Below, in pieces: positions 1,722-12,353 of a stretch of 39,060 bases of DNA (position 1 is its first letter; the number at the start of each line of letters is the position of its first letter). The notes beneath the pieces are model-generated. The model had not been told where the DNA came from and did not search any database. It saw nothing but the letters and a program-made list of their open reading frames with translations. Both the position numbers and the translations under genes were made by a program. The DNA comes from Patescibacteria group bacterium. GTDB taxonomy: Bacteria; Patescibacteriota; Patescibacteriia; JACQRZ01. The stretch covers positions 1 through 39,060 of the forward strand of contig JBBTRI010000018.1 of NCBI GenBank assembly GCA_038065255.1. Reading direction: 5' to 3'.

Positions 1722-2756
1722 ATGGATCTAAAAGAACACATTTTTGATGTAATTTCCAAAAAGAGAACGGTTTCGAACGCTGAACTTTCTCGTCAAACGG
1801 GGTTTTCTCGCGTTTATATACACCGTTTTCTTAAGGCTCTATGTGAAGAGGGCCGCATAGTGCTTGTTGGTAGGGCAAATAAGGCGCGCTATGTTCTTGC
1901 AACAAAAAAGGCAGTACTTTCTGAAAAAAGTGGCACTCTTTCATTTCGGAGGGCGTATCGTATTGCGGGATTGACCGAAGATGCAGTGCTTGCAGATATT
2001 AAACACGAGACCGGAATCTATCAGAACATGGCACAATCCGTAGCGCGCATTGCGGATTTCGCATTTACGAAAATGTTGAATAACGCTCTAGAGCATTCGC
2101 ATTCAAAAACAGTCGACGTGTATATGATGCGGGATGCAGCTACGCTTCGGTTTGATATTCGGGATCGCGGCATTGGAATTTATCGAAATCTCATGCAGAC
2201 CCATCATTTTGATGGAGAGCTTGATGCAATTCACCAGTTACTTAAAGGCAAAGTTACTACAGCCCCCCGCGCTCATACGGGGGAAGGTATCTTTTTTACT
2301 TCAAAACTGGCAGATGTTCTTGTTATCGAAAGCGGCACTACAAAACTGACCTTTCACACACTGCTCGACGATATTTTTATAACAAAAATTAAGACAAAAC
2401 AGGGAACTCGTGTGAGTTTTTCTCTTTCACTGCACTCAAAAAGAATGATTGAAAAAGTGTTTCACGCATATACCGATTCATCATACCATTTTTCCAAGAC
2501 GAATGTTCGCATTAAACTCTACGCGCTTGGAGTAGACTATATTTCACGCTCGCAAGCCCGTCGGCTTCTTGTTGGGCTGGAAAAATTTCAAGAAATCATT
2601 CTTGATTTTAAAGATGTACAATCAATTGGCCAGGCATTTGCAGATGAAATCTTTCGCGTATGGCAGAGAAGACATTCTGCCATACGACTGACGTGGGTTC
2701 ATGCGGAAGAAGCCGTTAAATTTATGATTAAGCGTGCATTGCACGAGGCTGAATAA
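1722..2756 (+). CDS. Winged-helix / GHKL ATPase / STAS-like (DUF4325) fusion regulator
   Basis: This is a 344-aa protein with three parts. Residues 1-62 form a winged helix (helix-turn-helix around 18-40, 'SNAELSRQTGFSRVYIHRFL', then a basic wing). Residues about 95-235 are a histidine-kinase-type ATPase without a phospho-acceptor histidine: N box MLNNALEHS (118-126), G1 box DRGIGI (148-153) and G2 box HTGEGIFF (185-192). Residues about 262-335 match the STAS-like DUF4325 domain (SRSQARRLL, ILDFKDVQSIGQAFADEIFR). The combination resembles an anti-sigma kinase and its STAS antagonist fused onto a DNA-binding domain. I chose the ATG at 1722 rather than the in-frame ATG at 1617, because a strong promoter and palindromes lie between them. 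It is probably co-transcribed with the HD gene five bases downstream. Targets are unknown. Confidence 0.8.
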   Translation: MDLKEHIFDVISKKRTVSNAELSRQTGFSRVYIHRFLKALCEEGRIVLVGRANKARYVLATKKAVLSEKSGTLSFRRAYRIAGLTEDAVLADIKHETGIYQNMAQSVARIADFAFTKMLNNALEHSHSKTVDVYMMRDAATLRFDIRDRGIGIYRNLMQTHHFDGELDAIHQLLKGKVTTAPRAHTGEGIFFTSKLADVLVIESGTTKLTFHTLLDDIFITKIKTKQGTRVSFSLSLHSKRMIEKVFHAYTDSSYHFSKTNVRIKLYALGVDYISRSQARRLLVGLEKFQEIILDFKDVQSIGQAFADEIFRVWQRRHSAIRLTWVHAEEAVKFMIKRALHEAE

Positions 2757-11804: not shown

Positions 11805-11849
11805 CAGAGAGACTATTATATGGTATGTACTAGGTAGTATTGTACATAC
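11801..11849 (+). promoter_or_regulatory. Candidate control region with 8-bp inverted repeat before the dsRBD gene
   Basis: A TTGACA hexamer (11801-11806) is followed 17 bp later by a weak TATGTA preceded by TG. GTATGTAC (11823-11830) and GTACATAC (11842-11849) are perfect inverted repeats with an 11-base centre, ending three bases before the ATG at 11853. It could be a DNA operator, or an RNA hairpin masking the start if transcription begins further upstream. Confidence 0.45.
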
Positions 11850-11852
11850 ACA

Positions 11853-12353
11853 ATGGGAAGAAAACCTGTTTTAGAACACACAAAATGGAGAGATGAGCTT
11901 AGCCGCCTCTGTGGTTCATGTAAGTGGGAGCTACCACGCTATAGTGTCCGTGAAATCGACACCGCTGATGAGCCGAAATTTTCGGCCACGTGCAGGGTGT
12001 TTGTCGATGGCTATGTATTGGAAAGCAGTGCATGTAATGCGCGAAGAAAAAAAATCGCATGCCAGCGAGCAGCGCAGAATATGCTCACCATCTTGCGGCG
12101 TTTTGTACGGGATAAGCAGCTCTATGGTGAAACAGATTTGTTTTATCAGGATGATCCACTAAGTGTATTTGCATTCCGGCGCGACATGGAATTGCCACAC
12201 TATACATATAGCGGTCCCCATGATGGCATTACGGCAGTAGGAACATTCCGTTCGGGCAACGAGAGCGTGCGAGGACAGGCAGTCGCTACGACAAGACAGG
12301 CAGCACGTGCCGCAGCAAGCAGAGAGATGATGAAACAACTCCCATTCTTCTAA
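11853..12353 (+). CDS. Stand-alone protein with two double-stranded-RNA-binding domains
   Basis: The 166-aa protein consists almost only of two dsRBD-like units. Unit 1 (about 11-84) shows the helix 1 pattern DELSRLC...WELPRYSV, a beta segment PKFSATCRVFVDG, and the basic N-terminus of helix 2, ARRKKIACQRAAQNML. These match the family consensus (LP.Y, F.....V.G, KK.A...AA...L). Unit 2 (about 101-164) shows FAFRRDMELPHYTYSGP, GITAVGTFRSG and TTRQAARAAASREMMKQL. There is no RNase III catalytic motif, no signal peptide and no other domain. In bacteria dsRBDs normally occur attached to RNase III, so this tandem architecture recalls eukaryotic DRB-like proteins. It may bind structured RNA in the cytoplasm. 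Confidence 0.75.
   Translation: MGRKPVLEHTKWRDELSRLCGSCKWELPRYSVREIDTADEPKFSATCRVFVDGYVLESSACNARRKKIACQRAAQNMLTILRRFVRDKQLYGETDLFYQDDPLSVFAFRRDMELPHYTYSGPHDGITAVGTFRSGNESVRGQAVATTRQAARAAASREMMKQLPFF

What the first reader, a model, noticed from the sequence alone, without database searches (positions are those of the whole stretch)
11853..12353. Free-standing tandem dsRNA-binding protein in a bacterium
Two dsRBD-like units with no catalytic domain make up the whole protein. In bacteria this fold is expected as the tail of RNase III; tandem free-standing dsRBDs are a eukaryotic layout. It could be an RNA chaperone, an antiviral sensor or a regulator of RNase III. Possible origin by transfer from a eukaryotic host or virus deserves testing.
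Basis: partly seen in the sequence, partly recalled or inferred. Interest (0 to 1): 0.65.

Follow-up and report, generated by a model that had tools for sequence, protein, structure and literature searches.

The report
Lone tandem dsRNA-binding protein, candidate bacterium
This small bacterial protein is just two double-stranded-RNA-binding domains in a row, a layout usually linked with animals and plants; its closest relatives by sequence are the tails of a little-studied group of bacterial, archaeal and viral RNA-degrading enzymes, so a eukaryotic origin is not needed to explain it.

Summary
ORF 11853-12353 (+) encodes 166 aa with two dsRBD folds and no catalytic domain. Pfam dsrm scores unit 1 above cut-off (35 bits). 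Unit 2 is missed by Pfam but found by a profile of prokaryotic dsRBDs (about 33 bits). An alignment-based AlphaFold2 model shows two dsRBD-type domains (pLDDT about 90 and 82); its best PDB matches are tandem dsRBD proteins. The near-complete 1.09 Mb genome (Patescibacteria by inference) has its own ordinary RNase III; this gene is additional.
The interpretation needs correction. Prokaryotic dsRBDs are not confined to RNase III: RNB (RNase II/R-type) exoribonucleases with two to four C-terminal tandem dsRBDs occur in cyanobacteria, Methanosarcina, Patescibacteria, plasmids and large viral contigs, and in one same-family genome. Both window domains match these tails better than RNase III tails or any PDB eukaryotic dsRBD. 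No other free-standing tandem version was found in about 720 genomes of its phylum.
Best reading: a free-standing, non-catalytic dsRNA-binding adaptor related to RNB-enzyme tails. Unit 1 keeps the KK motif; unit 2 looks degenerate. Eukaryotic transfer is unsupported but not formally excluded (76 alignment columns). With no ortholog, selection and function are untested.

The parts
11853..12353 (+). Free-standing tandem dsRBD protein, 166 aa, predicted pI 9.3
   Evidence: ORF; Pfam dsrm; AF2 model; pI
11886..12122 (+). dsRBD unit 1 (aa 12-90): alpha-beta-beta-beta-alpha; keeps the KK pair at the start of the last helix; lacks the GPxH histidine
12123..12155 (+). Linker (aa 91-101), low confidence, probably flexible
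   Evidence: pLDDT below 50 at aa 90-104
12156..12344 (+). dsRBD unit 2 (aa 102-164): short first helix; RQ in place of KK; not detected by Pfam
11823..11849 (+). Perfect 8-bp inverted repeat (11-nt loop) just upstream of the ATG; uncertain relevance, not unusual for this window

Best explanation
The gene encodes a non-catalytic, cytoplasmic dsRNA-binding adaptor made of two dsRBDs joined by a flexible linker. By sequence it belongs with the tandem dsRBD tails of the RNB (RNase II/R-type) exoribonucleases, and it probably arose as a detached or independently kept copy of such a tail. Shown here: the ORF, the two predicted dsRBD folds, the rank order of sequence similarity, the absence of a detectable RNB gene in this genome, and the absence of other free-standing tandem versions in the genomes sampled. 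Inferred: unit 1 grips duplex RNA (hairpins or sense-antisense duplexes) through its KK-bearing helix; unit 2 has lost most RNA-contact positions and mainly dimerises, contacts a partner, or adds weak RNA affinity. The net effect would be to shield, or present to RNase III or other RNases, structured RNA in trans, as the tail presumably does in cis for the RNB enzymes.
For: Pfam dsrm on unit 1. AF2 plus Foldseek. In phmmer of each unit against pooled dsRBDs, the top 12 hits of unit 1 and 11 of the top 12 of unit 2 are RNB-tail domains: unit 1 at 37.5 bits (Methylobacterium), unit 2 at 19.3 bits (Aphanocapsa). A profile of the genome's own class of RNase III tails scores the protein at only about 4 bits. 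The best PDB sequence match is 16.4 bits. tblastn against plasmids finds only three places, all in ORFs that encode RNB ribonucleases with dsRBD tails. Of 39 RNB proteins in which tail dsRBDs were found, 38 have 2-4. Same-family genome G009 has RNB plus two dsRBDs, and its last dsRBD scores 65 bits with the tandem profile, against 38 or less for the RNase III matches in the class. No RNB in the own genome. In the tree unit 1 sits with the Methylobacteriaceae RNB dsRBDs, support 74/82, and both units fall outside the RNase III branch (97/90).
Against: The tree rests on 76 columns, the window domains are long branches, and AU tests do not reject grouping unit 1 or unit 2 with RNase III, or unit 1 with TARBP2 dsRBD2. 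The RNB-tail profile is broad and also scores RNase III tails at 30-41 bits. The tandem profile used for the class and phylum searches (A4) includes the window sequence, so its self-score means nothing. Unit 1 lacks the GPxH histidine and the usual Q/E in helix 1, which could mean weak RNA binding. There is no ortholog in the 11-genome family sample, so selection is untested and the gene may be recent or decaying. No direct RNA-binding data.
Confidence: 0.55

Rival explanations
1. A regulator or cofactor of the cell's own RNase III, comparable in role to TARBP2, Loqs or DRB4 with Dicer: unit 1 delivers duplex RNA and unit 2 contacts RNase III or dimerises.
For: The genome has an intact RNase III. 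The nearest folds in PDB include tandem dsRBD Dicer partners. Unit 2 has lost RNA-contact residues, as protein-contact dsRBDs do (the comparison with protein-contact dsRBDs is general knowledge).
Against: No genomic linkage to RNase III, which is on another contig. Fold-level similarity is shared by all tandem dsRBDs. No other class genome searched has such a partner beside its RNase III.
Confidence: 0.15
2. Acquired by transfer from a eukaryote or a eukaryotic virus, a free-standing DRB-type gene.
For: The layout and fold resemble DRB and TARBP2 proteins. AU does not reject a grouping of unit 1 with TARBP2 dsRBD2 (p 0.20). BFVD fold hits include free-standing viral DRBM proteins.
Against: Sequence similarity to PDB eukaryotic dsRBDs is 16 bits at best, against 37.5 bits to prokaryotic RNB tails. 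Codon-position GC is like the neighbouring genes. Viral fold hits are at low identity.
Confidence: 0.08
3. A mobile-element-borne RNA protector or counter-defence protein, passed on by the plasmids and large viruses that also carry RNB-dsRBD enzymes.
For: RNB genes of this kind lie on many plasmids and on viral contigs of 126-536 kb. The gene sits at a junction not conserved in the relatives examined.
Against: Neighbours are metabolic and glycosyltransferase genes, with no mobile or phage genes beside it. No match in phage records and no PADLOC hit.
Confidence: 0.12
4. A decaying or functionless remnant of an RNB-dsRBD gene.
For: Long branches; no orthologs; unit 2 degenerate.
Against: Intact ORF with its own start codon, both folds predicted with good confidence, codon-position GC like neighbours. 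No upstream RNB remnant; the gene before it is an intact 2-hydroxyacid dehydrogenase.
Confidence: 0.1

Closest known systems
RNB-domain (RNase II/R-type) exoribonucleases with C-terminal tandem dsRBDs (e.g. on Acaryochloris plasmid NZ_AP026078.1, Methylorubrum extorquens AM1 megaplasmid NC_012811.1, Methanosarcina, G009)
   Same: Tandem dsRBDs; in several members the domain starts are 90-100 aa apart, as here; best sequence matches for both units; KK at the start of the last helix in most of the later domains
   Different: The window protein has no RNB domain and no RNB gene was found in its genome
Bacterial RNase III (C-terminal dsRBD)
   Same: dsRBD fold
   Different: Single dsRBD after a catalytic domain; own-class profile scores the window at about 4 bits; the class RNase III tails keep the GPxH histidine and mostly KQ, which the window units do not
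Eukaryotic tandem dsRBD proteins (TARBP2, Loqs, DRB4, MLE dsRBDs)
   Same: Free-standing tandem layout (TARBP2, Loqs, DRB4); best fold matches in PDB
   Different: Sequence match weak (16 bits at best); no Dicer-type partner known
Other non-RNase III dsRBD proteins in the same bacterial class (L055, L056, L057)
   Same: dsRBD outside RNase III
   Different: One dsRBD each; L056 and L057 carry an extra C-terminal domain that Pfam does not recognise

Membership tests
dsRBD (Pfam PF00035 dsrm) | Profile score above the curated cut-off | tested here: met
   Unit 1 at 35 bits against 23; unit 2 not above cut-off in Pfam but found with a prokaryotic dsRBD profile
dsRBD (Pfam PF00035 dsrm) | alpha-beta-beta-beta-alpha fold | tested here: met
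   AF2 model for both units, pLDDT about 90 and 82; Foldseek hits to dsRBDs. Predicted, not solved
dsRBD (Pfam PF00035 dsrm) | RNA-contact residues: helix 1 Q/E, GPxH loop, KKxAK at the last helix | tested here: inconclusive
   Unit 1 keeps KK only; unit 2 has RQ and lacks the others
dsRBD (Pfam PF00035 dsrm) | Binds dsRNA | not testable with these tools
   Needs a binding assay
RNB-dsRBD exoribonuclease | RNB catalytic domain | tested here: not met
   Absent from the ORF and not found in the genome
RNB-dsRBD exoribonuclease | Tandem dsRBD tail of the RNB type | tested here: met
   Top pairwise matches and profile scores; unit 1 with Methylobacteriaceae RNB dsRBDs at 74/82, not strong
RNase III | Catalytic RNase III domain with signature | tested here: not met
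   Not in the ORF; the real RNase III is G000:C3, L002:826-1719
Eukaryotic DRB/TARBP2-type protein | Phylogenetic nesting among eukaryotic dsRBDs | tested here: inconclusive
   Not recovered in the tree, not rejected by AU for unit 1 (p 0.20)
Eukaryotic DRB/TARBP2-type protein | Partner RNase III-type enzyme (Dicer) | not tested
   An RNase III exists in the genome; interaction not testable here

The most novel reading that the evidence does not exclude
A free-standing bacterial counterpart of the DRB/TARBP2 cofactors: a two-dsRBD adaptor, evolved within prokaryotes from RNB-enzyme tails, that controls which duplex RNAs RNase III cuts in a bacterium with a very small genome.
Probability: 0.12. 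Interest if true: 0.75.

Novelty: new variant of a known kind. Interest (0 to 1): 0.47.

Why it matters
It shows that the tandem dsRBD layout is at home in prokaryotes (as RNB-enzyme tails across bacteria, archaea and large viruses) and can occur without an enzyme. That gives a route within prokaryotes to trans-acting dsRNA-binding cofactors, and a candidate to test in bacteria with very small genomes. The searches of the held open-access papers returned no description of either the free-standing form or the RNB-dsRBD family.

Tried and rejected
Orthologs by protein search: none in the 11-genome family, in genome contigs, viral contigs or phages; the weak class hits other than G009 are mostly in frames with stops and at chance level. 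The leader inverted repeat as an autoregulatory hairpin: 20 such perfect 8-bp arm pairs (overlapping ones counted apart) in the window and a folding z-score of 0.21, so dropped. A degraded RNB in G005: the match has a stop inside and lies at the edge of a collagen-like gene, taken as spurious. RNB-tail profile scores alone as proof of origin: rejected because the profile also scores RNase III tails at 30-41 bits; the pairwise ranking was used instead. A mobile island at the window locus: no phage or mobile genes beside the gene. Rfam: no match in the window. HicA 'dsRBD-like' toxins, seen in a paper: not tested further; no toxin family was matched.

Full report
OBSERVATION. The ORF 11853-12353 (+) is real and as described: 166 aa, ATG start. 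Pfam dsrm matches aa 14-80 with 35 bits, cut-off 23. Pfam does not report the second unit. NCBIfam, PADLOC and PHROGs give no named family. AlphaFold2 without an alignment gave a poor model (pLDDT 41). With an alignment of eight tandem dsRBD tails it gave pLDDT 77.5, about 90 in unit 1 and 82 in unit 2, each of the dsRBD type, with a low-confidence linker. Foldseek's best PDB matches are tandem dsRBD proteins: MLE, TARBP2, DRB4 and Loqs. The relative position of the two domains is not determined (pTM 0.50).

GENOME CONTEXT. The window is contig 18 of a 1.09 Mb, 27-contig, 99% complete genome. The taxon is not named by the tools; a contig of the same-family genome G009 matches public record JAHFJA010000001.1 (bacterium isolate nzgw375) in length and in the encoded protein, and the small genomes of the class suggest Patescibacteria (inference). 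The genome has two dsrm matches: its ordinary RNase III (contig 3, L002:826-1719) and this gene. Upstream is an intact D-2-hydroxyacid dehydrogenase, downstream a convergent family 2 glycosyltransferase. Codon-position GC is like the neighbours'. In the relatives examined, the dehydrogenase lies in another gene order and the glycosyltransferase pair is kept in G001 without a dsRBD gene beside it, so the locus looks like a lineage-specific junction rather than a conserved operon.

DISTRIBUTION. Of 381 class genomes, 354 have a dsrm match and only 16, this one included, have more than one. The extra matches examined are mostly second or degenerate RNase III genes, plus single-dsRBD proteins (L055-L057) and one RNB fusion in G009. 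A tandem-dsRBD profile found no other free-standing tandem protein in the 381 class genomes or in a 380-genome phylum sample; the two draws overlap and together span roughly 720 genomes. The phylum's clearest tandem hits besides the window, G512 and G440, are RNB fusions. The search was a profile search and may miss diverged versions; absence applies to this sample only.

THE RELATIVES. tblastn against plasmids gave three weak places (E 2e-3 to 0.1): two in Acaryochloris genes annotated as RNB ribonucleases, and one in an unannotated Methylorubrum extorquens ORF that Pfam reads as RNB plus dsrm. Following this up, a scan of genome contigs with an alignment of three RNB-dsRBD proteins returned 80 loci; the lower-ranked ones match only the RNB region. 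Of 39 proteins in which tail dsRBDs were found, 38 carry two to four. They come from cyanobacteria, Methanosarcina, Bacteroidota, alphaproteobacteria and Patescibacteria/Peregrinibacteria. Four of six viral contigs that hold such an enzyme also show dsRBD tails by profile. Plasmids of Rhodococcus, Pseudomonas, Streptomyces and Variovorax carry related RNB proteins; their tails were not analysed here. The claim that prokaryotic dsRBDs mean RNase III is therefore incomplete.

WHICH dsRBDs IS IT CLOSEST TO? In phmmer of each unit against pooled domains (38 first and 47 later RNB-tail dsRBDs, 37 class RNase III tails, 3 eukaryotic), the best hits are RNB tails: unit 1 at 37.5 bits to Methylobacterium, unit 2 at 19.3 bits to Aphanocapsa. 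The class RNase III profile gives about 4 bits, but it is a narrow profile; the RNB profile is broad and scores RNase III tails at 30-41 bits too, so profile scores alone do not decide. The best PDB sequence match is 16.4 bits. In a maximum-likelihood tree of 80 domains and 76 columns, RNase III tails form a branch (97/90) that excludes both units, and unit 1 sits with the Methylobacteriaceae RNB dsRBDs at 74/82. AU tests do not reject unit 1 or unit 2 with RNase III (p 0.27, 0.23), or unit 1 with TARBP2 dsRBD2 (p 0.20). The RNB-tail affinity is thus best supported, not proven.

HOW IT MAY WORK (inferred). Unit 1 keeps the KK pair that in known dsRBDs contacts the phosphate backbone (general knowledge), but not the GPxH histidine or the helix-1 Q/E. 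Unit 2 has RQ and lacks the rest. This suggests moderate duplex binding by unit 1 and a structural, dimerising or partner role for unit 2. The protein is basic (pI 9.3) and has no catalytic part, so it would act in trans: shielding or presenting structured RNA. No RNA target or partner is known.

LITERATURE. Searches of the held open-access library returned no paper on free-standing tandem dsRBD proteins in bacteria or on RNB-dsRBD enzymes; subscription papers are largely not held, so this is weak evidence of novelty. A 2013 survey mentions HEPN-RNase III-dsRBD fusions in cyanobacteria (PMC3710099).

VERDICT. Observation confirmed; eukaryotic-origin idea unsupported; a new variant (free-standing) of a prokaryotic tandem-dsRBD tail. 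Function open.

Noticed in passing
L064:8132-9940 (-) (G009), L090-L140, L178, L180, L227, L228, L232: A family of RNB exoribonucleases with 2-4 C-terminal tandem dsRBDs spans bacteria, archaea and large viral contigs; the paper searches run here returned no description of it.
   Followed up: partly
L056:1423-2049 (+), L057:1336-2235 (+): Class relatives with one dsRBD joined to a C-terminal domain that Pfam does not recognise and that by eye looks nuclease-like (GID...LQVKSS).
   Followed up: partly
L055 (G223:C19, around 1880-2074, minus strand): A small free-standing single-dsRBD protein (48 bits to dsrm) whose C-terminal stretch resembles by eye the end of L056 and L057.
   Followed up: partly
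L034 (G287:C1:1090282-1090482, minus strand): A 508-aa open frame that reads as two RNase III-like halves in tandem, one degenerate, ending in a dsRBD.
   Followed up: no
L009, L048, L059, L061: Second RNase III-like proteins in several class genomes, some with apparently changed catalytic signatures.
   Followed up: no
window 11823-11849: Perfect 8-bp inverted repeat with an 11-nt loop directly before the start codon; similar repeats occur elsewhere in the window, so not remarkable.
   Followed up: yes
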